From Bacteriovorax sp. BSW11_IV (GTDB taxonomy: Bacteria; Bdellovibrionota; Bacteriovoracia; Bacteriovoracales; Bacteriovoracaceae), in the NCBI RefSeq assembly GCF_000447755.1, contig NZ_AUNE01000055.1:1-54292 (forward strand): DNA of 54,292 nt, read 5' to 3'. The notes under the pieces are model-generated. The model searched no databases. It saw only the letters and a list, made by a program, of their open reading frames with translations, and was not told where the DNA came from. The position numbers and the translations under genes are program-made. Of the stretch, positions 4,186 to 54,152 are shown in pieces. How positions within the stretch are numbered: the stretch's first letter is position 1; every line of letters begins with the position of its first letter.

Positions 4186-4262
4186 TGGTGGCTCGGGGCA
4201 GAGTTGAACTGCCGACCTATGGGTTATGAATCCATCGCTCTCACCAACTGAGCTACCAAGCC
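4186..4262 (-). tRNA. tRNA-Met (anticodon CAT), elongator type
   Basis: The 77 bases fold as a cloverleaf with an encoded CCA. The acceptor stem is GGCTTGG/CCGAGCC with one T-G pair, the D-arm is GCTC/GAGC, the anticodon loop is TTCATAA, and the T-arm is GGCAG/CTGCC with loop TTCAACT. G1-C72 is paired, unlike initiator tRNA. The T4/T5 acceptor bases and the AGTTGGTGA D-loop resemble elongator tRNA-Met more than the lysidine-modified tRNA-Ile2. One A31-C39 mismatch sits at the base of the anticodon loop. Confidence 0.9.
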
Positions 4263-4357
4263 ATTCATTTTGTACATCGGATATTAAAGTTCCCCAGAGT
4301 TTCTGTCAACAATAATATTTCAAAAAGTTATGAATTTTTTTATACTTACGCTCTTTG

Positions 4358-19700: not shown

Positions 19701-20364
19701 ATTTTTGAGCCAAATGGTAGACAACAAATTGAGTTTTTGTTGCACCTGCATTTTGATGGCGTTTAGGAACGACAGAATCACCTCTGTTAAGAATTTCAAT
19801 CGAATAATGATTCTCAAATAAGTTCATGATTTCATCTTCTAAAATTGAAAATGGCGGGCCCACGTCAGGGACTTGAGTCTGTTCATAAGTTTGCATAAGA
19901 ATCTTTGTATCTCCACTTGAAAGATTGCAAAGATGTTGCGCATACTTTTGTCGCATCTCTTTTGGAAGTGCAACAATACTTGCTCTGTCATATACGTCAA
20001 ATTTACCAAGATCTTCTTTTGTGAGATCAAAGAAAGAGCCCAAGTACAGAGCTATATTTTTACTTCTATAAATTGAGAATTTTTCATTTTTTTCAATTTC
20101 AAAAGAAAGACTGTTTTCAATAAAAAAATCCTCTACGGCCTTTTCTGCAATTTCAACTCCAATGACATTGTGGCCATTCTCTAATAGCCATAGCATATCG
20201 AGAGATTTTCCACATAGGGGAACAAAAACATTTTTAGTCTTGTTAAATATCTTTGGTCCAATAGTTGTTAACACTTTATTTGGGGCACTTTGATGAAAAC
20301 CAGTCATGCCTTTATCCCATGCTTCTATCCAAAAATCTTTTTCCACTTTTAGGCCTTTATTCAC
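19699..20364 (-). CDS. Thiopurine S-methyltransferase-like enzyme
   Basis: A 221-residue class I SAM methyltransferase of the TPMT family. Diagnostic segments are DFWIEAWDKGMTGFH near residue 10, VFVPLCGKSLDMLWL near 47 (SAM site) and HNVIGVEIAEKAV near 69. In bacteria the family methylates thiols, selenite or tellurite compounds, or halides. The GTG start at 20364 lies inside the end of the PEP-utilising gene (8-bp overlap), so it is the last gene of the five-gene minus-strand lipid operon and the operon terminator follows. A role in methylating a product of that pathway is an inference from position. Confidence 0.85.
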   Translation of the reverse strand: MNKGLKVEKDFWIEAWDKGMTGFHQSAPNKVLTTIGPKIFNKTKNVFVPLCGKSLDMLWLLENGHNVIGVEIAEKAVEDFFIENSLSFEIEKNEKFSIYRSKNIALYLGSFFDLTKEDLGKFDVYDRASIVALPKEMRQKYAQHLCNLSSGDTKILMQTYEQTQVPDVGPPFSILEDEIMNLFENHYSIEILNRGDSVVPKRHQNAGATKTQFVVYHLAQK

Positions 20365-23038
20365 TAAGGATTTCGATTAATCCTGTTTCTCCATTAATTT
20401 CAACCATCATACCGCTTTTCAATCTCTTTGTCAGATCCTTCACACTTACAATTGTTGGTAGTCCCATTTCCCTTGCCACTATGGCAGAGTGGGAGAGTAG
20501 TCCGCCCCTTTCCACAAGGAGGGCACTAATCGATGGATATAGCGGAATCCAGCCTGGGTCAGTTCTTTTAGCGACAACAATTTCTCCATTTAAAACTAAG
20601 TCGTCTTCTGGACCGTTGATTACTTTAATCACGCCTCGAATAACTCCTGGGCAGCAGCCGATACCGCGCATTTGATTTTCTTTCAAATCTCCAAGTTCAA
20701 TAGGTGTTGGTTCTTCAAAAATATTATTGTGCCAATAAACAGGACCTCGAGTATGAAAGCGTGGTTTAGGATCTTCGCTATTTTCATACTCATGAAATTC
20801 TTTCTTTCGAATATTTATAAGCGCTCTTAAATCTCGTGTCGGCATTGTTCCTTCAAGTCCGGCCTTAAGTTCTTGTAGAGTAATGAAAAAGATATCTTCG
20901 CGATTGTCGATAATATTTCTTTTTGTATAGTCACTGCCAATGGCATAGAACATTCTTCTCACAATTCCATAGACACGTGTGCGACAAAAACGTGTGTTTT
21001 CTCTATTCATCACGGCCTTTCTTGCATGTTTTAGCGACCATTTATAGATCAATCCTTTAAGACCAGAAATATTCTTTGATAACATTTCTTCAGCATTGTT
21101 TCTGATAGCCTTTTCTCTTTTTTCAAATTCATGTAAATCAGTTTGACCAGAGTTGATGATATTCTTTAGAAATATAAAGAAAAGAGAAGGGTCTTGGTAA
21201 AGGTCTTTTTGTTCAAGTTTCATCTCACTCATACATCTAAAACCGTAACGATCAATATAGTCTGTGACAATTTTATGGAAACTTTGAAATTTACTCTGGC
21301 GTAAAAGTTCAATTAAAATATCATTGTCATGTTCAAAGAGAAATTCTCTGAGTTCAATGTCTTTTTCAACAACTCCCGCAATCCTTATGAGCTCTTTTGT
21401 CGGCATGGCTGATTCAAGATTTCCATTTCCTGCTAGAAGATCATTATGGAAATTTGCCCCTAGGTGTGATAGCCACGTCTCTGTGAGTTTTTTAAATATT
21501 CCAAAGTGCACCATACATAGAAAGTCATTAATGATTGGAGCATGCCAGCGCCATAGCATTTCTTTTTCAAGATCATGGTATTTAAGATAGATGGCGTCCG
21601 CTGGCATGGACTCAAAATCAATTTTCTTATACTTTTCATAAGTTTTATAGAAATAATCGAGAAAATTATCGACAACATTTTGTGCATTAAGATGGAAGTA
21701 AAAAAACTTCATTCCCGTTAAAATTTTTCTAATTTTAGAACCTAAAGTATTTTGAAATGATGGAGGTCTTACTCTGTCAGCGATCTCATTTTGAAGGGCC
21801 TCATTTGTCCCCATCATTGTTTCCATAAAGGCCCTGTTGTACTTGTAGCCAGGTAGAATACTTGTCAGTTTGTACCAGTTTAATAAATTGTAATAAACAC
21901 GACCATTGAAATGTCCGAGCATATTTTTTAAGAAAAAATCCATTTCCTTTATATGCTTGTGTGGGACCATTAAGACTTCACAAAATTGAACATACACTTG
22001 GTGATACACATAATGGGCAAAACCAAACGTTAATGGCCTTGTTATGCCTCCGTAGCTTTCGACAATATTGGAGTTGTCCCACATATACAGTTGTCCTTTT
22101 GAACAAGCTACTTCTGTCGTAATTGGTCTTGCTTGCAAGATATAGATCTTTCCATCTTTTATGGCCCATTCAATATCTTGAGGGAAGTGATATAAATCTT
22201 CAATCCTCATACCAAGTATATATAATTGCCCCAGTTCGGTACTATTAAGAGATGAAGCATCCATTAAAGAGTCAGGAACACTGGCTTCTTTTGGTGCCTG
22301 ATTTATATGATCAGCGAGGAGTTTCTTTTCTTTTTTTACAATTTCTTGATTATTAAGGGCACCGTTTTCTTTATTAAGTGCATATGTATCGGCATCTAAG
22401 AGTCCGCTTACCAAACCCTCGCCAACACCATAAACGGAATTAATAAGCATCTCATCACCACTGGTTGTAACAGGGTTTGCTGTAAACATAACTCCACTTT
22501 TATCAGGATCAATCATTTCTTGAATAACAAGCGAGACTTGAATATTTTCATTTTTAAGATTGTTTTCCCTTCTATAGCTTAAACAACGATGACCAAAGGC
22601 CGAGGTCCAGCATTTTTTTATGGCCTTTAAGAATTTATCTTCTTCGCTGATATAGAGATGGCTCTCTAGCATACCTGCAAAAGAGTGGGCGCCTCCATCT
22701 TCATCGAGGGCCGATGATCTAACGGCGATAACTTTATCTCCAAAGCCTCTTTTAAGTTCTAAGAGAAACGCTGTGAGCTTTTCATCTATTGGAGTTTGAT
22801 CAATCAATATTTCAATTTGCTTTGCTTTGTCTTCTTCACTTATGTCCATGAGAAGTATGTCCGCTATTTTTATGTCTAGTCCGCTCGTTTTTGCAAAGTG
22901 GTTAAAACTGTGTGGTGTAAGTACTTTAAATTCTGGTACTGGAAGTCCTGCTCTTCCAAGAATGTAGAGATTTAACCCTTTTCCGCCACAGTATTTTTTT
23001 GCAATAAATGAATCACTGTTTTTGTCGATAATAATCAT
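20357..23038 (-). CDS. PEP synthase / rifampicin-phosphotransferase-like enzyme
   Basis: This 893-residue protein combines an N-terminal ATP-grasp domain of the PPDK_N type with a C-terminal phosphohistidine swivel domain. The N-terminal part has GGKGLNLYILGRAGLPVP, VRSSALDEDGGAHSFAGM near 110 and SGVMFTANPVT near 180. The swivel domain has GGLLSHSAIVAREMGLPTIV near 845, with the catalytic His in LSH. There is no C-terminal PEP/pyruvate TIM barrel, so it matches Rph-type phosphotransferases rather than true PpsA. The central 400 residues, which in Rph hold the substrate domain, are unlike those I know. It sits in a lipid operon, so the target may be a hydroxyl on a lipid or isoprenoid; that is inference. 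Confidence 0.82.
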   Translation of the reverse strand: MIIIDKNSDSFIAKKYCGGKGLNLYILGRAGLPVPEFKVLTPHSFNHFAKTSGLDIKIADILLMDISEEDKAKQIEILIDQTPIDEKLTAFLLELKRGFGDKVIAVRSSALDEDGGAHSFAGMLESHLYISEEDKFLKAIKKCWTSAFGHRCLSYRRENNLKNENIQVSLVIQEMIDPDKSGVMFTANPVTTSGDEMLINSVYGVGEGLVSGLLDADTYALNKENGALNNQEIVKKEKKLLADHINQAPKEASVPDSLMDASSLNSTELGQLYILGMRIEDLYHFPQDIEWAIKDGKIYILQARPITTEVACSKGQLYMWDNSNIVESYGGITRPLTFGFAHYVYHQVYVQFCEVLMVPHKHIKEMDFFLKNMLGHFNGRVYYNLLNWYKLTSILPGYKYNRAFMETMMGTNEALQNEIADRVRPPSFQNTLGSKIRKILTGMKFFYFHLNAQNVVDNFLDYFYKTYEKYKKIDFESMPADAIYLKYHDLEKEMLWRWHAPIINDFLCMVHFGIFKKLTETWLSHLGANFHNDLLAGNGNLESAMPTKELIRIAGVVEKDIELREFLFEHDNDILIELLRQSKFQSFHKIVTDYIDRYGFRCMSEMKLEQKDLYQDPSLFFIFLKNIINSGQTDLHEFEKREKAIRNNAEEMLSKNISGLKGLIYKWSLKHARKAVMNRENTRFCRTRVYGIVRRMFYAIGSDYTKRNIIDNREDIFFITLQELKAGLEGTMPTRDLRALINIRKKEFHEYENSEDPKPRFHTRGPVYWHNNIFEEPTPIELGDLKENQMRGIGCCPGVIRGVIKVINGPEDDLVLNGEIVVAKRTDPGWIPLYPSISALLVERGGLLSHSAIVAREMGLPTIVSVKDLTKRLKSGMMVEINGETGLIEILSE

Positions 23039-23048
23039 TCTCTATTTC

Positions 23049-23903
23049 CTAGAAAGTAAGAGTTATATTTGTAATAAAAAATAAAATTATAAAAATTGAA
23101 CTAATTGAGCGAAAAAGTTTTCCTGCCCAAATTTTATCTGTCATTAAGTAGGGAAGCATTAAAATGAATGAAGTTAAAACAACGCCAATCAATCTGTAAG
23201 ATAGTTCATTGTTGTGAGCAAGTGTTACTAAATAGGTTGCGACCAAAATCTGACTAAACGTAAGAATGAAGGCCCCTGCTTTTCCAAAAATATTACTGTA
23301 GGTCTGAACCTTCTTCTCTTCAGAATTAGTAAATGTTTTGCGTCCAAATTCGAAAACGTTGAAACAAAAATAACAAGCAAGTGAACTTTGCCAGAAATTT
23401 AAAGGATTGTCTGTAAAGGCGCTAAAAGTTCTTAATGAGAGAAGGACAACTACAAATGTATGAGTTAGTGCATAAGTTGTAAGTTTGTTCTCTAAAAACT
23501 TTGAGATAAAAAACTCTTTATACATAAGCAGTGAATAGCTCCATGCCAAAAGGGTAAACATCTTGGTTGTTCCAGATTCATTCATTGTTAGTATGAATTC
23601 AAATACAAAAGTGGCCACAATGGCCATTCTCACATCTTTTAAAGTTAGTAGCCCTCTGGGAAGTGGGCGAGTAGGGTTATTTATAAGATCCGTTTGATAA
23701 TCTTTAATTTCATCATAAAGTCTCAGTTTAAAGAAAAATGATAGACAAAAGAGTAGTCCCCATAAACTTTTTGGGTTTCCAAAAAGGCCGATTGCCCCAC
23801 CCATTGCTAGATGATAGAGAACAAATAGGCCGATCATAACGATATGAATTGCAGGATCAAATCTCTCATTTGTAAATTGAATGAAGGCCCTCATTTTTCC
23901 CAT
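23049..23903 (-). CDS. UbiA-superfamily membrane prenyltransferase-like protein
   Basis: The 284-residue protein has about eight or nine membrane helices. The Asp-rich loop of UbiA enzymes is present as RLYDEIKDYQTDLINNPTRP near residues 60-80 followed by LPRG, matching the NDxxDxxxD-type motif, with the NPTRPLPRG pattern conserved. The second Asp motif is degenerate (FEFGRKTFTNSEEKK near 190). UbiA enzymes transfer an isoprenyl chain from a diphosphate to an acceptor within the membrane. The ATG shares one base with the stop of the ligase gene upstream (TAATG), so the two are translationally coupled. The acceptor is unknown. Confidence 0.78.
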   Translation of the reverse strand: MGKMRAFIQFTNERFDPAIHIVMIGLFVLYHLAMGGAIGLFGNPKSLWGLLFCLSFFFKLRLYDEIKDYQTDLINNPTRPLPRGLLTLKDVRMAIVATFVFEFILTMNESGTTKMFTLLAWSYSLLMYKEFFISKFLENKLTTYALTHTFVVVLLSLRTFSAFTDNPLNFWQSSLACYFCFNVFEFGRKTFTNSEEKKVQTYSNIFGKAGAFILTFSQILVATYLVTLAHNNELSYRLIGVVLTSFILMLPYLMTDKIWAGKLFRSISSIFIILFFITNITLTF

Positions 23904-26266
23904 TAAAGTATCTCTCTTAGTTTATTGTATTCAACTTTTGAGTGGTGACGTGGGTCCATTGGAATATTTTCTACACAAATAATCTTATCTACTGGAATGG
24001 CATTTTTATTCATCAGTCTCATGATTTCTTTGTGGGCCAACTCTTCATTATATTGATCCAAGTTCTTCTCGTTGATCGAATAAACACAATATGTGGCCTC
24101 ACCTAGTTCACTATGTTCTACACCCAAATAGGCCGCATGTTTAACAAATGGTAGTCTTTTCAAAATCACTTCTGCTCTTACAGGAAAAAGGTATTCACCA
24201 TCTCTTTGAATGGCATTATGGATGCGCCCTACAAGCCATAGGTTGCCATCATGATCCATTTTTCCCAGATCCCCAGTTCTGTGCCAAATAAGACCTTGAT
24301 GGTCCTTGATTTTACTTTTCTTAAAGGCGTCTTCATTGTTGTAATAGCGCTCACACACGTGCTCACCTTGAACAATAATTTCACCAACTTCGCCCTGGGC
24401 CCTTTCCCATTGTGCCCATTGCTGATCACTATGTATTTCGATAGGTCCTTTTTCAATTTTGATGAATTTTACTTTTAATCCTTCGTCAAAATGACCAACA
24501 TTGACCCCTTCTTCAACAAATTCTACATCTCGCTCAGAGCTTTCTTTTAACATGTCATTATCTGCAATATGGGCCATCGGTTCAACTTCAGTTGAACCAT
24601 AAAGGACAAGCACTTGTGCAGAAGGTGCGGCCTTTTTCATATTTCTTACATCATCTTTTGAGACAGGTGCTCCTCCCGTAATAATTCTTCTGATATTTGG
24701 AAGAGTTAAATTGTTGTCATTACAAAATTTTGAAAGTCCATTCATTAAGGAAGGTGATAGGGTTGTACAAGATACATTTTGTGTCGATATTTGTGTGTAG
24801 AGAATCATGGCATCCATTGGATTTGGCACACCTACATCAATGGCCGGTAAAATAGTTGATACGCCAGCTGCTATATTGTTTAATGAGAAAATTGGAAATG
24901 CTGGAATGTCACAATCATTTGTCTCATAAGGGATATGGCGGTTGAGGGCATAGTGTTGTGAGGCCAAAAAGCGATGTGAGCGATCCGCCCCTTTTGGTGT
25001 TCCCGATGATCCGGTTGTAAATGTAATGAGTGCTGTATGCTCTTTTTCAACTGCCTCAATATCGGCCCACTCATTACTTGAAATCAGCTTTTCAAAACTA
25101 GTTGTGTATTCGTTATCAGTTTGTCCCACTGAAATTTTTGTTGCGATGGCATCAATCGCATTAACGCCTTTTAAGTATTGGAAGGCCTTTTCTATACTAA
25201 TAATGGCCACGGGATCAACGACCTTTGCAGAAACATCGAGCTGATCTTTTCTGGCCCAGCTGTCTAGAAAGACTGCGATGGCCCCAATCTTTTGTAGCGC
25301 AAACATAGTCGTATACATCGGAAACGACATCGGAATAAAGACAATAACGCGATCACCTTTTTTTATCCCAAGTTTTTTTAGTCCACCGGCCACAATTCCA
25401 ACGGCCTTATGAAGATCCATAAAAGATGCATGCTGATGTTCAAGTTTATCAGCTTCTTTGTGTGCAAATTTTAAAATGTTTTCATAAGGAACCCAAGAAA
25501 GAACATTTTTGTCTGGCATTTTTTTGATATGCTCTTCTAGGAATGAGCAGACGTTATTCATCTTATGCTCACCTGGATAATAACCTTTTTTTGGTGCTTC
25601 TAATGCGCCATGAATAAAAGATACGCAGGCCTGTGTGGCAGTCCAAGGCAGGGCGTGTCCCATTCCTTCAAGTTTTAATTCATCTGTTAGAACGATTTTT
25701 TCTTTTAGTCTTTCAATTTGCTTAGTTGGCATAATTGATTGATCAGCATCACCATAGATGAGATAAATTTTTATTTTATGTTTGTTTAAATTTTTTAATT
25801 CTTTTTCAATCTCTTCTAAAGAGACTTGCTTTTCATTGATACTATTAATTAACAGATCGACATCGAGGTAGTTTTTTGAACATTCTCTGTAGCTTTGGGG
25901 AACGTCCTGTGGCGAAGCTGTCTTTAAGAGCATATCTTCAATACTTTTATTCATTGCTTTACTAATTAGTGCGCGACCAACTACTGGCATGTTGATTAAT
26001 GCGAGTTTTAAAGCTGACTCTTTTCTTGGGAAAATATAGGGAGCGATTAATATGAGGGCCTGTGTATTTTCAGGGTTTCGGTTTGCTCTTTTAATGGCGC
26101 TCAAGCATCCGAACGAATATCCAAGTTCAACTGTTTGTGTAAGAGATGGCGTTATGTCGTTCTTAGTATTAAATGTTACCTTTGCTTTGAGTTTATCTTT
26201 TAACAAGGAAAAGTCATGAGGATGACCAGGGGAGCCGTGGTGGATATTGACTGTAATTTCGCTCAT
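23903..26266 (-). CDS. Alpha/beta-hydrolase fused to acyl-AMP ligase (OleB-OleC-like)
   Basis: This 787-residue protein has two parts. Residues 1 to about 215 are an alpha/beta-hydrolase with nucleophile GYSFG (Ser51), Asp in YGDADQS and His in GMGHALPW. The rest is an ANL-type adenylating enzyme: P-loop TFTTGSSGTPKGADR near 415, YGSTEVEP near 550, RTGDLGKMDHDG near 668 and a C-terminal DPRHHSKVEYNKL with the catalytic Lys. The C-terminal D-RH-K pattern recalls OleC, the beta-lactone synthetase, and the order hydrolase-ligase recalls the OleBC fusion of actinobacteria. The thiolase OleA is absent nearby. A fatty acyl or hydroxyacyl substrate is likely. ATGA overlap with the formyltransferase gene. 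Confidence 0.82.
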   Translation of the reverse strand: MSEITVNIHHGSPGHPHDFSLLKDKLKAKVTFNTKNDITPSLTQTVELGYSFGCLSAIKRANRNPENTQALILIAPYIFPRKESALKLALINMPVVGRALISKAMNKSIEDMLLKTASPQDVPQSYRECSKNYLDVDLLINSINEKQVSLEEIEKELKNLNKHKIKIYLIYGDADQSIMPTKQIERLKEKIVLTDELKLEGMGHALPWTATQACVSFIHGALEAPKKGYYPGEHKMNNVCSFLEEHIKKMPDKNVLSWVPYENILKFAHKEADKLEHQHASFMDLHKAVGIVAGGLKKLGIKKGDRVIVFIPMSFPMYTTMFALQKIGAIAVFLDSWARKDQLDVSAKVVDPVAIISIEKAFQYLKGVNAIDAIATKISVGQTDNEYTTSFEKLISSNEWADIEAVEKEHTALITFTTGSSGTPKGADRSHRFLASQHYALNRHIPYETNDCDIPAFPIFSLNNIAAGVSTILPAIDVGVPNPMDAMILYTQISTQNVSCTTLSPSLMNGLSKFCNDNNLTLPNIRRIITGGAPVSKDDVRNMKKAAPSAQVLVLYGSTEVEPMAHIADNDMLKESSERDVEFVEEGVNVGHFDEGLKVKFIKIEKGPIEIHSDQQWAQWERAQGEVGEIIVQGEHVCERYYNNEDAFKKSKIKDHQGLIWHRTGDLGKMDHDGNLWLVGRIHNAIQRDGEYLFPVRAEVILKRLPFVKHAAYLGVEHSELGEATYCVYSINEKNLDQYNEELAHKEIMRLMNKNAIPVDKIICVENIPMDPRHHSKVEYNKLREIL

Positions 26267-27006
26267 AGTTTTATTTTCCTTTTAATTTTTGTTATTTGTT
26301 TTAAAGTTGGTGTTTTGTAATAAATGATATTTTCACTGGTGTTAGTTGTGCCATATAGTTCGCGCTTATTTGAAATGATATCAATGACTCTTTCACAGCA
26401 ATTTGCTTCTAGCTCCATGCTCTTTTTTTGATACTCAATAAAAGAATGAATTTCATTTTTCTTAGAGACAATCTGTTGTTGGAGAATTCTTCCATCATCA
26501 AGTTTTGGCGTCATTTCATGGATGGTAAATCCTGCATCTTTATTTTGGTACAAAGACTGTAGATCACACAATGTTCCCCTTTGATCGGGAAGAAGACCAT
26601 GATGAATATTTATGCACCCAATAGTAGGGGCCTTCAAAATGGCCTTTTTGTAAATGTAGCGCGTTCTTGAATTGATGATGAGATCAATGCTTTGGTTTTT
26701 TACGAAATTTATAAATTCATCGCAATTCACCGTCTTAAATTCATGAAATGAAGCATTGTAACCAATCGCCAACTTTTCTCTTTGTTGGTGATAGTGCCTA
26801 TTTAAGAGTTGGTTTTTGATTAGATTGGCCCCTGTTTTTCTTGCGCCCGCAAGCATGAGTGCCAGTCCTTTTAGGACATGTTCGTTGGTACTATTATCTA
26901 AGACTATGAGGTAGTGAATCTTGCCTGATGCCAAGAGGAGTTCAATAAATTTTGAATAATTGTTCTCTATAAAGGTCACTTTACTCGTAATGAGGGCCGT
27001 TTTCAT
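26263..27006 (-). CDS. Formyltransferase-family enzyme (Fmt/PurN-like)
   Basis: The start is the ATG at 27006, with AAAGGAA 5 bases upstream, giving 247 residues; a longer frame to 27084 has no ribosome site. The formyltransferase catalytic segment is CINIHHGLLPDQRGTL near 140, holding the Asn and His of the N-H-D triad, and the Asp is in KLDDGRILQQ near 180. The short C-terminal extension lacks the tRNA-binding domain of methionyl-tRNA formyltransferase. It is the first gene of the minus-strand lipid operon and overlaps the ligase gene by 4 bp. It may formylate an amino group on a sugar or lipid head group, as ArnA-type enzymes do; substrate unknown. Confidence 0.82.
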   Translation of the reverse strand: MKTALITSKVTFIENNYSKFIELLLASGKIHYLIVLDNSTNEHVLKGLALMLAGARKTGANLIKNQLLNRHYHQQREKLAIGYNASFHEFKTVNCDEFINFVKNQSIDLIINSRTRYIYKKAILKAPTIGCINIHHGLLPDQRGTLCDLQSLYQNKDAGFTIHEMTPKLDDGRILQQQIVSKKNEIHSFIEYQKKSMELEANCCERVIDIISNKRELYGTTNTSENIIYYKTPTLKQITKIKRKIKL

Positions 27007-27137
27007 ATAATTCCTTTGCCTTATTGTAGCTTCTGGCCGCTTTATTTTTAACCATACAGTAAATTTTATAGGGAGCTGTATCATCTAATTACAGGTTCTT
27101 ATACAATGGGCCAACACACAGAAACTTGGATACCACC

Positions 27138-28103
27138 ATGCAAGAAATTAGTATTTATATAAATGCAAAGTCGAGCACTTCGGATCGTTTTGATTGGCAA
27201 AAAGGCCTTGAAGAAGTTCTTTTTCGCTCTCAGCTCAATTTTAGAAGTCCCACCACGATTGCTGAATTAGAAGAAGGTCTAGAAAGTGATGCCAAAAGAG
27301 GTGTTGATTCTATTATCTCCATTGGTGGTGATGGCACAGTTAATACTATGATTCAAAAACTTGCGGGTACTAATTTAAATCTTTACGTTGCCCCAGGGGG
27401 AACGGCCAATGACCTTGCAAGCGAGCTTAATTCAAAGCGAGTAATGAAAGATCTTTCACATGTTGTTCGCGCCAAAAATACAAAAAAAATGGATCTCATC
27501 AATATTAATGGCCGCTATATGGCCACCAATGGTGGTATTGGTTTTGCGGCCAACGTTGCTGAAAAAATAAATGATCTAAGAAAGAAATTTCCGGCCTTTA
27601 AAAGACTTATGGGAGTTACGGGAAGGGCGATTTATCCCTTCATGGCCGCGAGCGAGTTTTTAAGTATTAATTATAAAATTTATGAATTTTATATTGAAAG
27701 TGAACAGTTCACAGGCAAAGTGAGATCCCCCCTTATTATGGTGAATAACCAGAAAACAATCGGGCAAACATTTGAAGTGGCACCACAGACTAAAAATGAT
27801 GATGGAAGCTTTAACGTGACTATTCTCACGCATAATAATAGAGCAAAACTTGCCAATTGTATGATTCGCCTTGCCAGCGGAGCTGATCCGGCCCTTGATC
27901 CAAATATTATTACTTTTGAAACGAAGAAAATGTCTATTACAAACCTAACTGATGAAAAACTATCTTTCTTTGGTGACGGTGAGGTTTTTGATAACCTACA
28001 AAATACTTCTCACTTTGAAATTAGTGTCCTTGAAAAAGGTCTTAATGTTTTTTATAACGATCTCGATCCCTATGCACAAGGGATGGAGGTTCATCTTTCA
28101 TGA
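27138..28103 (+). CDS. Diacylglycerol/sphingoid-base kinase family (YegS/LCB5-like) protein
   Basis: The 321-residue protein starts at the ATG at 27138 (a TTG lies 4 codons upstream; neither has a clear ribosome site). The lipid-kinase catalytic motif SIIGGDGTVNTMI-type sequence (GGDGTVN) is near residue 60, and the nucleotide loop APGGTANDLASEL near 85. The C-terminal region has FFGDGE, the strand that returns to the active site. It would phosphorylate a lipid alcohol such as diacylglycerol, a sphingoid base or a fatty alcohol glyceride on the membrane. It is the first gene of the plus-strand lipid operon, overlapping the next by ATGA, and diverges from the formyltransferase gene. Confidence 0.85.
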   Translation: MQEISIYINAKSSTSDRFDWQKGLEEVLFRSQLNFRSPTTIAELEEGLESDAKRGVDSIISIGGDGTVNTMIQKLAGTNLNLYVAPGGTANDLASELNSKRVMKDLSHVVRAKNTKKMDLININGRYMATNGGIGFAANVAEKINDLRKKFPAFKRLMGVTGRAIYPFMAASEFLSINYKIYEFYIESEQFTGKVRSPLIMVNNQKTIGQTFEVAPQTKNDDGSFNVTILTHNNRAKLANCMIRLASGADPALDPNIITFETKKMSITNLTDEKLSFFGDGEVFDNLQNTSHFEISVLEKGLNVFYNDLDPYAQGMEVHLS

Positions 28104-29128
28104 GAGACTTCCTCTTAACTGGTGCAAGCGGCCATATTGGTGAATCTGTTCTTAATCATCTTCATCTTGTAGATGATATTCGTCTTCATTGTCCCTTACG
28201 TCCAAATACATTTGATCGTCTATCTGAGAAGCTAAAAAGCAAATATCCGAGTGTTGAATTCTTTGCCTGTGAGCTTTCAGATATTGAATTAATCGAATAT
28301 ATGGAACAGAAATCTTTTGAAGGTATTATCCATATTGCTGGTCTATATGATTTAGATGCAAATAATGGAGATCTTTATTTGAGTAATGTTGTGGCGTCAA
28401 TGGGTTTAGTGAATGTTTGTAATCGGCTAAAAATATCTCGCTTCTTACATATTAGTACTGTTGCCGTGGCCGGTAGTATTAAGTCTGAATTAAAAGAATC
28501 TCCGCTTAAAAATAAAGACAAATTCTACAATGAATATGAACGAACAAAATATATGGCGGAGGATTTTATTGTTAATTCTCTCCATCCTGATTGTTCACTA
28601 ACAGTCATGAGACCGGGGATTGTTCTTGGTAGTAGTGATGCTTCAGTTCAAATTAAATTAGACGGTCCATATTTTGTTATTAATTACATTAATCAGTTCA
28701 AGAATATTTTAAAAAAATTATTCTTTCTTTATTTTCCCTATAATCCCATTAGTGTGATGCCTTTTTGTAATGTCGACATGGTTACTCAGGCGATCTGTTC
28801 ATGGATTGTTGAAAAGAAAGAGTATGAAAAATATTATAATATTGTTTTTAACAACAACCCTAATGTTGAAATTTTTCTGAAAGAAGTTCTTGCTGCTTTT
28901 GATATTCGTTTAAAACTTATACCAACTAGAAAGATTACACTTTTAAAAAAAGTTTTACCCTATGTGAATATACCAGCAAATCTTTATGATTATCTATTCT
29001 ATGGACCGACCATTTCTAATGAATTATTTCAACGAGATTTTTCAAAGGTTGCGACCAATTATGAAGATTACTTCGATTCTTTTATTAGTAATTATAAAGC
29101 ACAAAACAAAGGCCTAGCAGGTGAGTAA
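28100..29128 (+). CDS. SDR of the thioester-reductase / epimerase type
   Basis: An extended short-chain dehydrogenase of 342 residues. The nucleotide motif TGASGHIG is at residues 7-14, STVAVAG near 115 provides the catalytic Ser/Thr, and the YxxxK pair is in YERTKYMAE near 146. VMRPGIVLG is near 170. The pattern fits the NAD_binding_4/thioester-reductase and fatty-acyl-reductase branch as well as sugar epimerases. A C-terminal region of about 120 residues, hydrophobic and aromatic, may bind an acyl chain. It overlaps the kinase gene (ATGA) and the acyl-ACP reductase gene (8 bp), so it is likely to act on the aldehyde or keto product. Confidence 0.78.
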   Translation: MRDFLLTGASGHIGESVLNHLHLVDDIRLHCPLRPNTFDRLSEKLKSKYPSVEFFACELSDIELIEYMEQKSFEGIIHIAGLYDLDANNGDLYLSNVVASMGLVNVCNRLKISRFLHISTVAVAGSIKSELKESPLKNKDKFYNEYERTKYMAEDFIVNSLHPDCSLTVMRPGIVLGSSDASVQIKLDGPYFVINYINQFKNILKKLFFLYFPYNPISVMPFCNVDMVTQAICSWIVEKKEYEKYYNIVFNNNPNVEIFLKEVLAAFDIRLKLIPTRKITLLKKVLPYVNIPANLYDYLFYGPTISNELFQRDFSKVATNYEDYFDSFISNYKAQNKGLAGE

Positions 29129-31166
29129 AACAATTAAGCACCTTGTCTCTGTCTCTTTTGGGATGGAAGACTATAATTATGATAAAATTGTAGAATTTGG
29201 AGGTGAAAAATTTCGTATCACTCAATATTCAACCAATTTTAATCTCGATTCAACTCTAGCTCTTATAAAAAAATATGACGGTAATTGTGATGCTTTTTGT
29301 ATTTCAGGCATACCTTCGCAAATTACTTATGGAAAAAATAAGTATTTTACTCACCCTCAAAGTTCAAAAGTAAAGGCCAGTGCATTTGAAACTCCAATAT
29401 TTGATGGACAGGCCCTTAAAGATATTTATATCCCTTATGTTTTAAGAAAAGATATTGTGGCCCGCTCTAATTTTTATCAGGGTCAAAGCTTCGCACTCTA
29501 TTCAGGTGCCCTGTCGCGCAGAGAGGCCGAAGTCCTATCTGAGTCGGGAGTTTCTTTTACTTTGGCCGATATGTATTTCTTCTTAAAAATACCCAAACTA
29601 TTAAAGTCACTTTCTTCATTAAATCTTCTTATTGGTTCACTTGTTCCTTTTATGAAGAAAAAAACTCTAAGAAGAAGCCGATTATCATTATTTAGTACAA
29701 ACACTCCTAATATGAGTGAGTTTTTTAATAATGACGTTTTTGTCGGTACGGAAGCTTCATTTAACTATATCGATCTCACACACCTAAAAGGGAAATCTGT
29801 TGTTCTTGACATGGTAACTCCGCAGATTACTCGAAAATTTCAGGCAGCTGGTGTTGCAGATGTTTCTTCCCTCCTAGATCCAAGCATTGGTCTTGATGGC
29901 CTAAACTTTTCCATAATTGAGGCCCTAATTTACCTGCAGTCAAAGCAAAGTGAGCTTAGAGAAAAGGATATTTTAAGTTGGATTGAATCTCAAAATACTA
30001 AAGTTCACGCCATTGAACTCTCGCCAAAAAGTGTCGATGACAAATCGCGATTCGCGTTTATTATTCATCCTCTTTCTGGTGAATATTTACTGAAGCATCC
30101 ACTTCTTAGAAAACTTCCTCGCAGTAAGTTTATGACGAAAATGGCCGAAGATGCTTTTTCTTATATGCCTGGTTTTTACTATGGAAGTATTAAAAATATC
30201 ACTAGTAAAAAAAATGGTAAAACTGTAGAGGGTCTTGTTTACGCTGTGACTGAGACGCCTAAAAAATTAATGCAAAAAAATCCAGAGAGCGTTTATAAAA
30301 AACTTGTCTCTCTATCATATGATGCCAAAAACCATGGCGCTTCGATAATAGGTCTAGGAGCTTATACAAAGATTGTTGGTGATGCAGGGGTTACTGTAAA
30401 CAATAGAAGTCCAATACCTGTGACGACTGGTAATTCATTGTCGGCCTGCTCGACTTTGTGGGCAGCAAAATATGCGATTGATAAACTTGGTTTTGTTCCT
30501 AAGGAAGATGGCCGTTATCAAGGTCGTGCCATGGTCGTTGGTGCCACTGGTAGTATTGGGGCCGTGAGTGCGAAAGTATTGTGTAAGAATTGGAAAGAAA
30601 TTATTTTGGTTGCCCCAAGGGCCCATAAACTTCTTGAACTTAAAGAAGAAATTTTAAAGCTTTTTCCGGCAATGGAAATTCGTATCGGTACTAATCCTGA
30701 TGAGTTTTCTCATGAAACGGATCTCATTATTACAACGACCAGTGGTCAAGGGGAGAAAATTTTAGACATCTCTCAAGTTAAGGCCGGTGCCGTAATATGT
30801 GATGTCTCTCGCCCTTTTGATATTAGCAAAGAAGAGGCCTTAACCAGACCAGATGTTATGGTTGTGGCCTCGGGTGAAGTTCTTTTGCCTGGTGAAGTTG
30901 AAATGAAAATTGATATTGGCCTTGAGGGTGATATGGTTTATGCCTGTCTTGCTGAAACGGCACTATTGGCCCTAGAGGGCCGCTATGAATCTTTCACACT
31001 TTCGCGAAGAATCGATTATAATAAAGTTATTGAAATAGATCGCATGGCGCGTGAACATGGTGTTCGTTTGGCCACGATTATGGGTCATAATGGTGTGTTA
31101 ACGGACGAAGAATTTGATTTGTGTCGTGAGCATGCGCTAGTAAAAAGGGAGTCTACTTGTGACTAA
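29121..31166 (+). CDS. Long-chain acyl-ACP reductase (AAR) with extra N-terminal domain
   Basis: A GTG start yields 681 residues. The last 340 match cyanobacterial acyl-ACP reductase, which makes fatty aldehydes from acyl-ACP. Residues in order: AFIIHPLSGEYL near 310, NHGASIIGLGAYTKI near 405, VTTGNSLSA near 438, the NADPH loop VVGATGSIG near 473, and YACLAETALLALEGRY near 608, where Cys matches the acyl-thioester Cys of the cyanobacterial enzyme; RxxHGxxLA ends the domain. The first 300 residues are an additional domain starting KHLVSVSFGMEDYNYD, with DAFCISGIPSQI and TPIFDGQALKD, which from memory resembles proteins annotated as quinate 5-dehydrogenase. The normal AAR is about 340 residues, so this is a fusion. 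Confidence 0.85.
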   Translation: MSKTIKHLVSVSFGMEDYNYDKIVEFGGEKFRITQYSTNFNLDSTLALIKKYDGNCDAFCISGIPSQITYGKNKYFTHPQSSKVKASAFETPIFDGQALKDIYIPYVLRKDIVARSNFYQGQSFALYSGALSRREAEVLSESGVSFTLADMYFFLKIPKLLKSLSSLNLLIGSLVPFMKKKTLRRSRLSLFSTNTPNMSEFFNNDVFVGTEASFNYIDLTHLKGKSVVLDMVTPQITRKFQAAGVADVSSLLDPSIGLDGLNFSIIEALIYLQSKQSELREKDILSWIESQNTKVHAIELSPKSVDDKSRFAFIIHPLSGEYLLKHPLLRKLPRSKFMTKMAEDAFSYMPGFYYGSIKNITSKKNGKTVEGLVYAVTETPKKLMQKNPESVYKKLVSLSYDAKNHGASIIGLGAYTKIVGDAGVTVNNRSPIPVTTGNSLSACSTLWAAKYAIDKLGFVPKEDGRYQGRAMVVGATGSIGAVSAKVLCKNWKEIILVAPRAHKLLELKEEILKLFPAMEIRIGTNPDEFSHETDLIITTTSGQGEKILDISQVKAGAVICDVSRPFDISKEEALTRPDVMVVASGEVLLPGEVEMKIDIGLEGDMVYACLAETALLALEGRYESFTLSRRIDYNKVIEIDRMAREHGVRLATIMGHNGVLTDEEFDLCREHALVKRESTCD

Positions 31167-32253
31167 AAAGTATTTTAGCGAGCTAAATTACAGTCTAGGT
31201 AATGAAGATACACGCCTTGAAGTGGCCATGGTGAAAAAACTTTCGCCTAAAAATATTTTCGCAATTGCTGGATGTGGGTCCCGCGCTTTACCATTGGTTT
31301 TAGATGGCGTTAAAAGACTCGTTTGTGCAGATGTCTCACAAAATCAGCTCTACATCACAGAACTTCGTCGTGAGACCATTCGCCATTTTACTTTTCAAGA
31401 TTTTCTTTTATTTTGGGGTTTTCCCCCTTATGGCTCATATGATTATTCTCACAAAAGACGTGAGCTTTTCTATACCTTGAGTCTGTCAGATGAGGCCAAC
31501 GTCTATTTTTTAGAATTATTCAAAGATAATGGCTGGAAGTCGATCCTTTACTTAGGTAAGTGGGAGAAGACGTTTAAGGTTCTCGCAAAAATTAATCGTT
31601 CAATTTTAGGTAAAAATTATGATCGCATTTTCAATTTTTATCATATTGGTGATCAGGCCCGATATTATGAGAATGATTTTCCATTTAAGAAATGGCAAAT
31701 GGTGCTCTTTGTTTTAGGTAATAAAGCGATGTTTAATGCTCTTTTATATAAGGGAGACTTTATTAAAAAGAACGTTTCCGAGAGCTACCTTGATTATTAT
31801 CAAAATGCTTTTGAACACCTTATGACTGAACAGCTGGCCCGCGAAAGTTATTTCATGCATCTTTGTTTTTTCGGTGAAATCTCTCATGCTGATGGTAATC
31901 CTGTCGAGGCCACTGAGGAAAACTTTAATACTGTTAAAAAGAATCTCGCAGAGGCAAAAGTCGATTTAGTGGCCACAGATATGGTGAGTGCCATTAAAAA
32001 TGAAGGGCCTTTTGACTTTTTGTCTTTATCTGATGTTCCAAGTTATTTTGCAGGGGATCTCGAGAAGAATTTTCTCCAAGATATAAGGCCAGGTTTGGCC
32101 CCTGGGGCCGTTTTAGTGATTCGCTCATACCTTCGTATACCTGAGGCCGATGAATCGGGCTTTGTGGATATTACGCCTCAGTTTGGACCTGAGATATTCG
32201 ATGAAAAGGTTCAAATGTATAAAGTTAAAGTTTTAAAATTTACTGGTGAATAA
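31159..32253 (+). CDS. BtaA-like (DUF3419) aminocarboxypropyl transferase
   Basis: The 364-residue protein starts at GTG 31159, inside the end of the reductase gene. Its first part is ELNYSLGNEDTRLEVAM, then FAIAGCGSRALPLVLDG (SAM loop) and VCADVSQNQLYITELRRETI, matching the BtaA/DUF3419 pattern of Y-x-x-x-W/N-EDxRL, a Gly-rich loop, then D-x-x-x-x-Q. The later SDVPSYF matches the SD motif of the family. BtaA transfers the 3-amino-3-carboxypropyl group of SAM to diacylglycerol in betaine lipid synthesis. No BtaB methyltransferase is adjacent, so the product may stay a homoserine-type lipid or a different acceptor may be used. It ends the plus operon before a terminator. Confidence 0.78.
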   Translation: MTKKYFSELNYSLGNEDTRLEVAMVKKLSPKNIFAIAGCGSRALPLVLDGVKRLVCADVSQNQLYITELRRETIRHFTFQDFLLFWGFPPYGSYDYSHKRRELFYTLSLSDEANVYFLELFKDNGWKSILYLGKWEKTFKVLAKINRSILGKNYDRIFNFYHIGDQARYYENDFPFKKWQMVLFVLGNKAMFNALLYKGDFIKKNVSESYLDYYQNAFEHLMTEQLARESYFMHLCFFGEISHADGNPVEATEENFNTVKKNLAEAKVDLVATDMVSAIKNEGPFDFLSLSDVPSYFAGDLEKNFLQDIRPGLAPGAVLVIRSYLRIPEADESGFVDITPQFGPEIFDEKVQMYKVKVLKFTGE

Positions 32254-51733: not shown

Positions 51734-51757
51734 AGGGGCCACTCGGGCCCCTTTTTT
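51734..51757 (+). terminator. asd terminator
   Basis: Stem AGGGGCC / GGCCCCT (51734-51740 and 51746-51752) with 5-base loop and a T-run, 8 bp after the stop. Confidence 0.93.
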
Positions 51758-52484
51758 AATGCATACTGCGTGATTGTCTCTTATCAGCATACTCTTTCTT
51801 TTTAACAGAAAGATTGTCGGCCAACAGAGCATCAGCTTTTGCAAAGGCATCCGTCACCAAATCGGAATAGAGCTTCGCTGTTACACTCACAGCGTATTTC
51901 ATCTCTTCTAATTCTTCTTGTGTTTTAATAAGGCCATCAATATATCCATGCATCATCTTTATGTGACCTTGATCGATTTTATGATGATCTTCAATAAATG
52001 ATAGTGCAGTATCAGGAACGCCAATTTCTTTAAAGGCCGCAATATACTCAGCTCCATATTGAGTTGGCATATACTCTAGATGAAAAAGATAGCCTAAGTA
52101 TCCAATTGGATTTCTAAATTGAATTTGATAATAAGCATAGGCCAAAAGCGCTGTCGTAATTGGTAAAGGATAACCCTCTACAATATTCTCCGTTTCATAT
52201 CCCAGTGCTTTGATATCATCTAAGGCCAATTGATCATGCCCAATCTCAGAGATGGCATGTTTATAAAAAGGCTTAATTTGCGATCTTTGATGATATTTAA
52301 AAAAGGCCGTTGCAAAAGTTTGAATCTGTGGATTCTCTCTTGTATGGTGATAAATCTGCTCCATCATGGCAGCATAATGCATTGGTGTCATTTCACGATC
52401 AAGGATACGTTTGAATCCTGTACTCGCGTGAACTTTTACCATTTCTTCTTTCCAAAAATTAAAAACCTGATCAAACATAGACAT
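51756..52484 (-). CDS. Haem-oxygenase-like di-iron oxidase/oxygenase family protein
   Basis: The all-helical protein of 242 residues follows the iron-containing redox enzyme (Haem_oxygenas_2/HDO) pattern. Likely iron ligands are Glu in AAMMEQIYHHTREN near 42, Glu/His/Asp in AISEIGHDQLALDD near 84 and the ExxHxxxxxxH set in FIEDHHKIDQGHIKMMHG near 175. Related enzymes include UndA (medium-chain fatty acid to 1-alkene), N-oxygenases and CADD. No haem-binding His is evident. It overlaps the acyltransferase gene by 14 bp, so both act together. Its substrate is unknown; an acyl-amino-acid made by the partner is a reasonable guess. Confidence 0.78.
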   Translation of the reverse strand: MSMFDQVFNFWKEEMVKVHASTGFKRILDREMTPMHYAAMMEQIYHHTRENPQIQTFATAFFKYHQRSQIKPFYKHAISEIGHDQLALDDIKALGYETENIVEGYPLPITTALLAYAYYQIQFRNPIGYLGYLFHLEYMPTQYGAEYIAAFKEIGVPDTALSFIEDHHKIDQGHIKMMHGYIDGLIKTQEELEEMKYAVSVTAKLYSDLVTDAFAKADALLADNLSVKKKEYADKRQSRSMH

Positions 52485-53133
52485 GATTAGACTCCATTAT
52501 ATTATTGTTAAACACATGAAGAGGACTCTCCAAATTGTGTGACTTTTCTTGCATGAGTACATGATAAAAAGGCGAGTTAATTGCTTTGAAGTAATCTTCA
52601 TCAAAATTGTTGCAAACAAAGATATTGATATCACCATACTCTGGATGGTGTGCTTTGTGAGAATGTACTAGACCATGACGAGTAAAGAATTTTACAAGAT
52701 GGTCGTTACAATCAATAAGCATATAAGGCGTATTAAATTTGAAATTCAATCGAAAACACTCTTCCATCAACATAAGGGGTGCTTCCAATAGCTGATTCTC
52801 TCTATCTGTAATGAGCTTACCGCAAAAAGAAACATCACCCCCACAAAAGTGATGGTACTGAGTGAAGTGAAAAATCTCATTGTAAGGAGCAATTGTTCCG
52901 CGCTTAATTTTGTTATAGCGAACGACACCAATGAGTTGATCATTTTCAAATATTCCCAAGTTCAAATTAGGAACATGATCCCATTCATCAACAATTATTT
53001 TGCGCTCATGATCTACATTCTTAAGGCCAGGACGGTTCATTTGTTCAACATAAACTTTGTAGCGAAAGCGATAAACCATGGCCAACTCAGCTGGAGTTGT
53101 TAGGCGATAGACGTGATGATTTAAATATTTCAC
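52471..53133 (-). CDS. FeeM/LuxI-like GNAT N-acyltransferase
   Basis: The GTG at 53133 has GGAGGA 5 bases upstream, giving 220 residues. The N-terminal AMVYRFRYKVYVEQM near 18-32 matches the LRxxVYVEE-type pattern of N-acyl-amino-acid synthases (FeeM) and autoinducer synthases, followed by DEWDHVPNLNLGIFENDQLIG-like strands (acyl donor side) and VVRYNKIKRG. The GNAT cofactor motif is weak, as in FeeM/LuxI, which use acyl-ACP. It would acylate an amino acid or amine. It overlaps the di-iron oxidase gene by 14 bp, so the two form an operon. Confidence 0.75.
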   Translation of the reverse strand: MKYLNHHVYRLTTPAELAMVYRFRYKVYVEQMNRPGLKNVDHERKIIVDEWDHVPNLNLGIFENDQLIGVVRYNKIKRGTIAPYNEIFHFTQYHHFCGGDVSFCGKLITDRENQLLEAPLMLMEECFRLNFKFNTPYMLIDCNDHLVKFFTRHGLVHSHKAHHPEYGDINIFVCNNFDEDYFKAINSPFYHVLMQEKSHNLESPLHVFNNNIMESNHVYV

Positions 53134-53366
53134 TGAATCCTCCGTGTTTCTAAAACTCGATGGACATAGTGTTCACATATTAAAAGGCCTAGGCCATATG
53201 GCCCAAGAACAAAGCGTTCGCTAGTAAAGAAGAGCATTATATTTCTCAAGAAACCTTGATTTTGAAGACCGTCGCCTAATAAAATGGACAGTTAAAATCT
53301 GTATTAAAGCGTCCAATTCGTTGAAATTTTGTTTAGTGTGCCATCATATTCCCGATAAGTAATATT
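53134..53366. promoter_or_regulatory. Divergent intergenic region with overlapping palindromes
   Basis: No gene seen. GGCCTAGGCC (53186-53195) overlaps GGCCATATGGCC (53192-53203), two perfect palindromes sharing a GGCC, between the divergent acyltransferase and repeat-protein genes. It may be an operator or simply reflect the high local GGCC content. Confidence 0.35.
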
Positions 53367-54152
53367 ATGGAAAGCATGAAAACATTATTTTTTACCCTTA
53401 GTTTATTCCTTACTCTTAACCCAGTTTTGGCCTCGGATGAAATCGTTGATTCAATGTCCGAAGAGCAAAAAGAACAATTTGTTCTGTGTGCTCATCAGGA
53501 TCAAAAATTTAATCATGGCCTTGGCACGCTCTACAATTTCTACGAAAAATACTACGATCGTTTTGTCGAGTATGAAGAGAGTCTTATTGCTAAGGGCAAG
53601 CTTAAACCTAGTCAAAGCTTTTCAAATATCGTTGCTCGCGGGGCCTACGACGCTGAAGAAGGACCACGCCAAGTTCCAACTAAAAAAGGTAACGGCGGTA
53701 AAGGATTCGCTTTTAGAAATGATCTCGCAGGCGGAGCTTACGACGCTGAAGAAGGTCCAAGACAAGTTCCAACCAAAAAAGGTAATGGTGGCAAAGGCCT
53801 CGTTTTTAGAAATGATCTCGCCGGCGGAGCCTACGACGCTGAGGAAGGGCCAAGACAAGTTCCAACTAAAAAAGGTAACGGCGGTAAAGGCCTCGTTTTT
53901 AGAAATGATCTCGCCGGCGGAGCTTACGATGCTGAAGAAGGTCCAAGACAAGTTCCAACTAAAAAAGGTAATGGTGGAAAAGGCTTCGTTTTTAGAAATG
54001 ATCTCGCTGGCGGAGCTTACGATGCTGAGGAAGGTCCAAGACAAGTTCCAACTAAAAAAGGTAATGGTGGCAAAGGCCTAACAGTTTTCACTGAAGATAC
54101 AACTCCACTGGTAAAACAAGTGCAGGTGAGAAGACTTTTTACTTTTAAATAG
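53367..54152 (+). CDS. Secreted protein with five 31-residue repeats
   Basis: I recognise no family. The 261-residue protein has a signal peptide (start ATG 53367 or 53376) and a domain of about 65 residues with one Cys. From 53640 it carries five tandem repeats of 31 residues, each beginning GAYDAEEGPRQVPTKKGNGG and ending KG-hydrophobic-FRNDLAG; the last is truncated after KG. Only two or three positions vary between copies. The codons differ at third positions, so the protein sequence is conserved by selection rather than by recent duplication. Each copy has an acidic half and a basic half with KK. A surface adhesin or a multi-copy precursor peptide are possibilities. Confidence 0.75.
   Translation: MESMKTLFFTLSLFLTLNPVLASDEIVDSMSEEQKEQFVLCAHQDQKFNHGLGTLYNFYEKYYDRFVEYEESLIAKGKLKPSQSFSNIVARGAYDAEEGPRQVPTKKGNGGKGFAFRNDLAGGAYDAEEGPRQVPTKKGNGGKGLVFRNDLAGGAYDAEEGPRQVPTKKGNGGKGLVFRNDLAGGAYDAEEGPRQVPTKKGNGGKGFVFRNDLAGGAYDAEEGPRQVPTKKGNGGKGLTVFTEDTTPLVKQVQVRRLFTFK
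53640..54077 (+). repeat. Tandem coding repeat, 93-bp period, five copies
   Basis: Copies start at 53640, 53733, 53826, 53919 and 54012; the fifth covers the first 66 bases. The period is a multiple of three and the frame is kept. Copies differ mostly at synonymous sites (for example GGGGCC, GGAGCT and GGAGCC for the same residues). Confidence 0.95.

What the first reader, a model, noticed from the sequence alone, without database searches (positions are those of the whole stretch)
51756..53133. FeeM-like acyltransferase paired with a haem-oxygenase-like di-iron enzyme
The two genes overlap by 14 bp. N-acyl-amino-acid synthases with LuxI-like N-termini make signal-like molecules, and HDO enzymes catalyse unusual oxidations including alkene formation from fatty acids and N-oxidation. 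The pair would give an oxidised N-acyl-amino-acid or a terminal alkene. I do not know a described two-gene system of this kind.
Basis: partly seen in the sequence, partly recalled or inferred. Interest (0 to 1): 0.66.

Follow-up and report, generated by a model that had tools for sequence, protein, structure and literature searches.

The report
Acyltransferase paired with di-iron oxidase
Two overlapping bacterial genes, one that should attach a fatty acid to an amine or amino acid and one that should oxidise something with a pair of iron atoms, travel together across distantly related bacteria (once fused into a single protein), so they very probably make an undescribed oxidised fatty amide.

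Summary
A FeeM-fold GNAT acyltransferase gene (52471-53133, -) overlaps by 14 bp a haem-oxygenase-like di-iron oxidase (HDO) gene (51756-52484, -). All six canonical HDO ligands are present. In 36 subfamily HDOs from Bdellovibrionota and Alpha- and Gammaproteobacteria, all 32 with intact ligands have a FeeM-like gene beside them (31 directly, one a gene away), in every orientation, including one fused gene. Three of the four HDOs with broken ligands do not. Eleven of those pairs came from a blind sample of 200 genomes.

Two things were not foreseen. In many relatives the FeeM-like partner carries a PilZ or cyclic-nucleotide-binding domain, or a nucleotide cyclase or histidine kinase is next door. 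The stand-alone GNATs, the window's included, lack the glutamate that is invariant in the PilZ-type synthases and is probably FeeM's catalytic one, so 'N-acyl-amino-acid synthase' is not established.

Most likely a two-step pathway: N-acylation, then oxidation of the conjugate with its carboxylate on iron. The rival order is amine oxidation first, then acylation. I found no published NAS-HDO system in the papers held. New variant of a known kind.

The parts
52471..53133 (-). FeeM-like GNAT acyltransferase gene (220 aa, GTG start)
   Evidence: ORF and translation; Pfam FeeM PF21926 E 2.1e-5, 24.8 bits vs cut-off 27; AF2 pLDDT 85.7; nearest solved structure FeeM 2g0b, VIA Z 17.4, Foldseek ranks 1-6
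51756..52484 (-). haem-oxygenase-like dimetal oxidase (HDO) gene, 242 aa; ligands E80, H83, E137, H167, D171, H174, plus MboA-type D84
   Evidence: PF14518 58 bits; AF2 pLDDT 91.4; 3dde Z 25.6, CtCADD Z about 22, HrmI Z about 20, UndA by Foldseek; ligand register to MboA and SznF and across 36 relatives
52471..52484 (-). 14-bp overlap of the two coding regions, suggesting translational coupling (inferred)
   Evidence: sequence read directly
53139..53143 (-). Shine-Dalgarno-like GGAGG, 5 nt before the GTG start of the GNAT gene
   Evidence: sequence read directly
52492..52495 (-). Shine-Dalgarno-like GGAG, 7 nt before the ATG of the HDO gene, inside the GNAT gene
   Evidence: sequence read directly

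Best explanation
The pair is a two-enzyme pathway. Step 1 (inferred from fold): the FeeM-fold GNAT transfers a fatty acyl group from acyl-ACP or acyl-CoA to the amine of an amino acid or similar small amine. Step 2 (inferred): the HDO loads two irons on E80/H83/E137/H167/D171/H174, binds the conjugate with its free carboxylate on Fe1 (as MboA, UndA, AetD, HrmI and PolF bind theirs), activates O2 and desaturates, decarboxylates or oxygenates the amino-acid part. The product would be an oxidised N-acyl amino acid or enamide. Shown here: the genes, folds (predicted), ligand set, strict co-occurrence, one fusion, and PilZ, cNMP-binding, cyclase or kinase partners in relatives. Not shown: substrates, reaction, order of steps, metal.
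For: GNAT model closest to FeeM, with AHL synthases TofI, LasI and BjaI also among the matches. HDO model 3dde/CADD/UndA-like with 3-His/3-carboxylate ligands in register with the MboA crystal ligands. Adjacency in the sister species, in swapped order in G360, in all 11 named Alpha- and Gammaproteobacterial loci, where the HDO-linked GNAT is also the best match in its whole genome, and in all 11 newly sampled alphaproteobacterial genomes. GNAT-HDO single ORF in L040. FeeM-PilZ partner in seven further Bdellovibrionota. Broken iron site goes with lost partner (Fisher p 5.6e-4, not corrected for phylogeny). Precedent for NAS plus an O2-dependent desaturating enzyme: TyzC-type nitroreductase beside the synthase in tyz and N-acyl-dehydrotyrosine loci (PMC12479983). 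A membrane FA desaturase is the third gene in L040, L042 and L009, pointing to a lipid product.
Against: No substrate or product is known. The GNAT falls just below Pfam's FeeM cut-off and lacks the Glu that is invariant in the PilZ-type synthases, so the acyl acceptor may not be an amino acid, and the donor may be a short acyl or acetyl group. HDO chemistry cannot be predicted from the ligand set (PMC13108848). In the window's genus the pair stands beside lysine-pathway genes only, without sensors.
Confidence: 0.55

Rival explanations
1. Reverse order: the HDO first N-oxygenates (or otherwise oxidises) a free amine such as lysine, as HrmI hydroxylates lysine N6, and the GNAT then acylates the oxidised amine to give a (fatty) hydroxamate or similar amide, as in hydroxamate siderophore pathways.
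For: HrmI, which yields N6-hydroxylysine, is among the structural matches (Z about 20, tied with many others). N-hydroxylase plus GNAT is the standard hydroxamate logic (general knowledge). In the window and in G002 the pair lies beside asd and the lysine/DAP cluster. It would also fit a GNAT without the NAS glutamate.
Against: The GNAT is nearest to FeeM, with AHL synthases close behind; these take long acyl chains, and no siderophore acyltransferase stood out in the searches used. The lysine neighbourhood is confined to this genus. No siderophore synthetase was noticed beside the pairs. The desaturase neighbours suggest a lipid.
Confidence: 0.25
2. Signal module (a statement about role, compatible with either order of steps): the oxidised acyl conjugate is a quorum-sensing-like autoinducer or intracellular lipid messenger, made under second-messenger control and sensed by the neighbouring kinase or cyclase.
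For: FeeM-PilZ fusions beside HDO in seven Bdellovibrionota, with a class III cyclase (GAF-cyclase in most) adjacent to the HDO or synthase in six of them (L081-L086) and beside the pair in G360. FeeM-like domain fused to a cNMP-binding domain in L047. Histidine kinase with five or more predicted TM segments divergent from HDO in alphaproteobacterial loci. Published NAS enzymes: NasP activated by cAMP, Nas343/354 with PilZ (PMC4897644).
Against: The sensor types differ from clade to clade and are absent in the window's genus. PilZ control could equally serve a surfactant or surface lipid. No receptor evidence.
Confidence: 0.2
3. UndA-like alkene formation: the HDO decarboxylates a fatty acid to a 1-alkene and the GNAT has an unrelated or supporting role.
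For: UndA is among the Foldseek matches (4wx0, 6p5q, 4wwj).
Against: 3dde and CtCADD rank above it and many heme oxygenases match equally well. A dedicated GNAT partner, even fused (L040), is not needed for UndA chemistry. By sequence the closest characterised relative is MboA, a peptide acetylenase.
Confidence: 0.05
4. Peptide tailoring: the pair modifies the repeat protein encoded divergently at 53367-54152 (or another ribosomal peptide).
For: The neighbour has a 93-bp repeat (4.8 copies), looks secreted, and has a repeat-bearing counterpart in G002. HDOs and GNATs both occur in RiPP pathways (HDO: PMC13108848; GNAT: general knowledge).
Against: No such repeat gene was seen beside the pair outside the genus. 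The protein looks Sec-exported.
Confidence: 0.03
5. Chance adjacency of two unrelated genes.
For: None beyond small-number worries within one genus.
Against: 32 of 32 intact subfamily HDOs have a FeeM-like gene next to them or one gene away, in all orientations and once fused. In 8 of 11 genomes it is the only match to that profile.
Confidence: 0.01

Closest known systems
[quoted passage not shown]
   Same: Nearest fold (2g0b, Z 17.4); Pfam FeeM matches 12 of 15 family members at E<=0.01; second-messenger control is known for NAS (NasP by cAMP, Nas343/354 with PilZ; PMC4897644) and PilZ and cNMP-binding fusions recur here.
   Different: Window protein below the Pfam cut-off; the Glu motif is lost in stand-alone HDO partners; known NAS enzymes are not described with an HDO in the papers searched.
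MboA, mangotoxin acetylenase (HDO; PMC13185094)
   Same: Closest characterised HDO by sequence (E 1e-6 single sequence, 4e-9 profile); same six ligands and the extra Asp after the ExxH histidine (D84 vs D90).
   Different: MboA acts on a ligase-made tripeptide with redox partner MboB. By alignment our protein keeps the Asn (N51) but has Q55 and L133 where MboA has Asp61 and Asp139 at the guanidinium; no MboB-like gene was seen next door.
Sden_3740 of Shewanella denitrificans (3dde)
   Same: Nearest solved structure (Z 25.6, rmsd 2.4 over 224 residues).
   Different: Uncharacterised; its gene neighbourhood was not examined here.
tyz/trz and N-acyl-dehydrotyrosine clusters (TyzA/NasY plus nitroreductase TyzC plus ThiF-like TyzB; PMC12479983)
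   Same: Logic: N-acyl amino acid synthase followed by an O2-using desaturating enzyme.
   Different: The oxidant is a flavin nitroreductase, not an HDO; no nitroreductase or ThiF gene beside the pairs in the neighbourhoods listed.
OlsB ornithine N-acyltransferases
   Same: Weak N-terminal match (E 0.0015; 6 of 15 members).
   Different: 18 bits against a cut-off of 350; no OlsA-like partner beside the pair.

Membership tests
Haem-oxygenase-like dimetal oxidases (HDO) | Seven-helix haem-oxygenase fold | tested here: met
   AF2 pLDDT 91.4; 3dde Z 25.6, CtCADD 22, HrmI 20
Haem-oxygenase-like dimetal oxidases (HDO) | 3-His/3-carboxylate ligand set (ExxH, E, HxxxDxxH) | tested here: met
   E80, H83, E137, H167, D171, H174 in register with MboA E86, H89, E143, H172, D176, H181; complete in 32 of 36 relatives
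Haem-oxygenase-like dimetal oxidases (HDO) | Binds two metals and performs an O2-dependent oxidation | not testable with these tools
   needs protein, metal analysis and assay
UndA fatty-acid decarboxylases | Conversion of a medium-chain fatty acid to a 1-alkene | not testable with these tools
   fold similarity only
[quoted passage not shown]
   2g0b Z 17.4; Foldseek ranks 1-6
[quoted passage not shown]
   24.8 bits for the window protein, although 12 of 15 family members match the model at E<=0.01
[quoted passage not shown]
   F103 in the window protein; I/Y/F/M/L in all 18 stand-alone HDO-linked GNATs, E in all 7 PilZ-fused ones. That this column is FeeM Glu95 is inferred; no direct alignment to FeeM was obtained
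[quoted passage not shown]
   needs expression and LC-MS
LuxI acyl-homoserine-lactone synthases | Pfam Autoind_synth (PF00765) match | tested here: not met
   not among window-protein matches up to E 1; 1 of 15 members at E 0.0014; fold similar (LasI Z 15.5)
OlsB ornithine N-acyltransferases | NCBIfam equivalog score (350 bits) | tested here: not met
   18.3 bits
tyz-type N-acyl amino acid oxidation clusters | Nitroreductase and ThiF-like cyclase beside the synthase | tested here: not met
   neighbours read as ORFs around the pair and scanned in part; none seen
Hydroxamate pathways (N-hydroxylase plus GNAT) | Downstream siderophore synthetase and N-oxygenase activity | tested here: inconclusive
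   no synthetase noticed in ORF lists of neighbours, not all scanned; activity not testable

The most novel reading that the evidence does not exclude
A new class of bacterial small-molecule signal: an HDO-oxidised N-acyl conjugate made by an obligate synthase-oxidase pair, produced under c-di-GMP or cyclic-nucleotide control (PilZ or cNMP-binding domains fused to the synthase, cyclase next door) and sensed by a dedicated membrane histidine kinase in Alphaproteobacteria, with the window's organism keeping a stripped-down version.
Probability: 0.2. Interest if true: 0.85.

Novelty: new variant of a known kind. Interest (0 to 1): 0.62.

Why it matters
About a dozen HDOs have known functions out of more than ten thousand predicted (PMC13108848). 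This pair gives one HDO subfamily a tightly linked partner enzyme, so its substrate becomes a testable guess. The GNAT-HDO fusion (L040) and the small two-gene size make heterologous expression simple. The PilZ, cyclase and kinase neighbours in relatives would tie the product to second-messenger signalling, and the physiological role of bacterial N-acyl amino acids is described as unclear (PMC4897644).

Tried and rejected
Pfam FeeM search of the whole own genome at E<=0.001 gave nothing, although the window GNAT is FeeM-like (24.8 bits); a FeeM-family search alone would have missed it. A search with the window GNAT as single sequence found only the sister species in its family; profiles were needed. 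About 245-aa proteins next to remoter HDOs of the same family (alignment A8) first looked like GNATs; profile comparison gave 2% probability and no convincing Pfam, PDB or NCBIfam match, so they are not counted as FeeM-like partners. A second set (A9) is GNAT-like (83%) but remote and also not counted. E42 in helix 1 was first considered a ligand; it is not conserved and the MboA structure does not need it. Direct mapping of FeeM Glu95 by PDB sequence searches failed. Literature searches for NAS with HDO, HDO with acyltransferase, and FeeM with diiron found no described pair; only open-licence papers are held. Craig 2011 on exosortase-linked synthases was not available. The Mantel correlation of GNAT and HDO distances (r 0.79 for 32 pairs, 0.47 for 17 alphaproteobacterial pairs) is confounded by species phylogeny and is not used as proof.

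Full report
Observation. The first matches Pfam FeeM just below its cut-off (24.8 vs 27 bits, E 2e-5) and the second matches Haem_oxygenas_2 far above its cut-off (58 vs 28.9 bits).

Folds. AlphaFold2 with a 15-sequence alignment gives confident models (HDO pLDDT 91.4, GNAT 85.7 with a disordered tail). [quoted passage not shown] all six best Foldseek matches), followed by other GNATs and AHL synthases within about one to three Z units. The HDO's closest is 3dde (Sden_3740, uncharacterised, Z 25.6), then Chlamydia CADD (Z 22) and, tied with haem oxygenases and TenA, HrmI; UndA appears in the Foldseek list.

Iron site. By sequence the closest characterised HDO is MboA (profile E 4e-9). The crystal ligands of MboA, E86, H89, E143, H172, D176 and H181 (PMC13185094), line up with E80, H83, E137, H167, D171 and H174, and MboA's optional ligand D90 with D84. 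The same profile aligns E137 and H167/D171/H174 to the corresponding SznF segment. In 36 subfamily members, 32 keep all six ligands.

Co-occurrence. The sister species G002 has the same pair at the same place beside asd. G360, in another family of the phylum, has it in the order HDO-GNAT. A scan of about 85,000 species genomes with the HDO alignment returned 12 loci, one of them G360 again; the other 11 are Alpha- and Gammaproteobacteria. All 12 have a GNAT of this family touching the HDO: upstream, downstream, or convergent, and in L040 in one 488-codon reading frame with it. In those 11 genomes the HDO-linked copy is the best match to the GNAT profile, and in eight it is the only one. As a test in which the GNAT played no part in the choice, 200 genomes of one alphaproteobacterial order were sampled with the HDO alone: 15 carry it, 11 of them new, and all 11 have the GNAT adjacent.

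Further Bdellovibrionota. Seven more genomes have a subfamily HDO beside a larger protein: N-terminal PilZ-like half and C-terminal FeeM domain (FeeM over the cut-off in those scanned). In G316 a cyclase gene lies between the two. Taken together, all 32 HDOs with a complete ligand set have a FeeM-like gene next to them (31) or one gene away (1). Of the four with broken ligand sets, three (G360 second copy, G318, G361) have none in the stretch examined, and the fourth (G362) has one that has itself drifted. Fisher p = 5.6e-4, not corrected for relatedness. The two genes therefore work together; this part I consider settled at about 0.95.

Sensors and lipids around the pair. In G363, G247, G200, G202, G168 and G316 a class III nucleotide cyclase, with a GAF domain, adjoins the HDO or the PilZ-FeeM gene; in G360 a cyclase follows the pair. 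In L047 the FeeM-like domain is fused to a cyclic-nucleotide-binding domain. In alphaproteobacterial loci a histidine kinase with at least five predicted membrane segments is divergent from the HDO. In L040 and L042, and next to a remoter HDO in L009, a membrane fatty-acid desaturase follows. Published synthases show that cAMP activates NasP and that Nas343/354 carry PilZ domains (PMC4897644), so a regulated FeeM is known; regulation plus an HDO is, as far as I could find, not. The window's own genus has none of these neighbours; the nearest cyclases in its genome are distant matches elsewhere.

A caveat about the enzyme name. All seven PilZ-FeeM proteins have Glu in the motif [VI]E[IVA][SA]R; all 18 stand-alone GNATs in the same alignment, including the window's F103, have a hydrophobic residue there. 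By position this is probably FeeM's catalytic Glu95, whose counterpart in Nas354 is essential (PMC4897644), but I could not align FeeM directly. The HDO shows a parallel split: R49-E50 is invariant in the intact HDOs with stand-alone partners and mostly replaced (G-L, G-R or K-Y; only G316 keeps R-E) with PilZ-type partners. [quoted passage not shown]

Mechanism. Most likely: acylation of an amino acid or amine by the GNAT, then oxidation of the conjugate by the HDO with its carboxylate on Fe1, by analogy with MboA and the other carboxylate-binding HDOs listed in PMC13185094. [quoted passage not shown] PMC12479983). The main rival is the reverse order, N-oxygenation by the HDO as in HrmI followed by acylation; the lysine-pathway neighbours in this genus make that worth testing. 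A terminal alkene (UndA-like) has no specific support.

Novelty. Each half belongs to, or closely resembles, a known kind; the obligate pair, its fusion and its second-messenger context were not found described in the open-licence papers searched. I rate it a new variant of a known kind, with a good chance of new chemistry.

Noticed in passing
L081 2982-4532, L082 3082-4611, L083 5770-7218, L084 3080-4582, L085 3582-5027, L086 7664-9226, L087 211-1599: PilZ-FeeM fusion proteins beside HDO genes in seven Bdellovibrionota genomes, most with a GAF-class III cyclase adjacent: a possible c-di-GMP- and cyclic-nucleotide-controlled acyl-amide pathway.
   Followed up: partly
window 53367-54152 (+): Secreted-looking protein with 4.8 copies of a 93-bp repeat (GAYDAEEGPRQVPTKKGNGGKG...), divergent from the GNAT gene; G002 has a counterpart with a different repeat at the same place (L002 2379-3119). 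No Pfam match.
   Followed up: partly
L015-L019, L021, L022, L024, L028, L030-L032, L074, L076, L078: A family of about 245-aa proteins with no convincing Pfam, NCBIfam or PDB match (alignment A8) adjoins HDO genes of remoter type in more than a dozen genomes of the phylum: a second, apparently undescribed HDO partner.
   Followed up: partly
L006, L007, L009, L010, L012, L013: Remoter HDOs with FeeM-like GNATs that keep the glutamate motif; some are followed by a hexapeptide-repeat-like (by eye) or membrane desaturase gene: probably further pathways of the same logic.
   Followed up: partly
window 20357-32253: Lipid- or metabolite-type gene group: PPDK-like, UbiA, hydrolase-AMP-ligase fusion, formyltransferase, DAG-kinase-like, NAD-dependent reductase, a 681-aa protein with a semialdehyde-dehydrogenase-like segment, and DUF3419 (BtaA-like).
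   Followed up: no
L020, L025: HDO genes between a PlsC-like acyltransferase gene and a TylF-like methyltransferase gene (by eye): a different HDO cluster in the same family of bacteria.
   Followed up: no
L037 / L090 (G362) 4217-5686: Pair in which the HDO has lost four iron ligands and the GNAT has also drifted: both genes appear to be decaying or repurposed together.
   Followed up: partly
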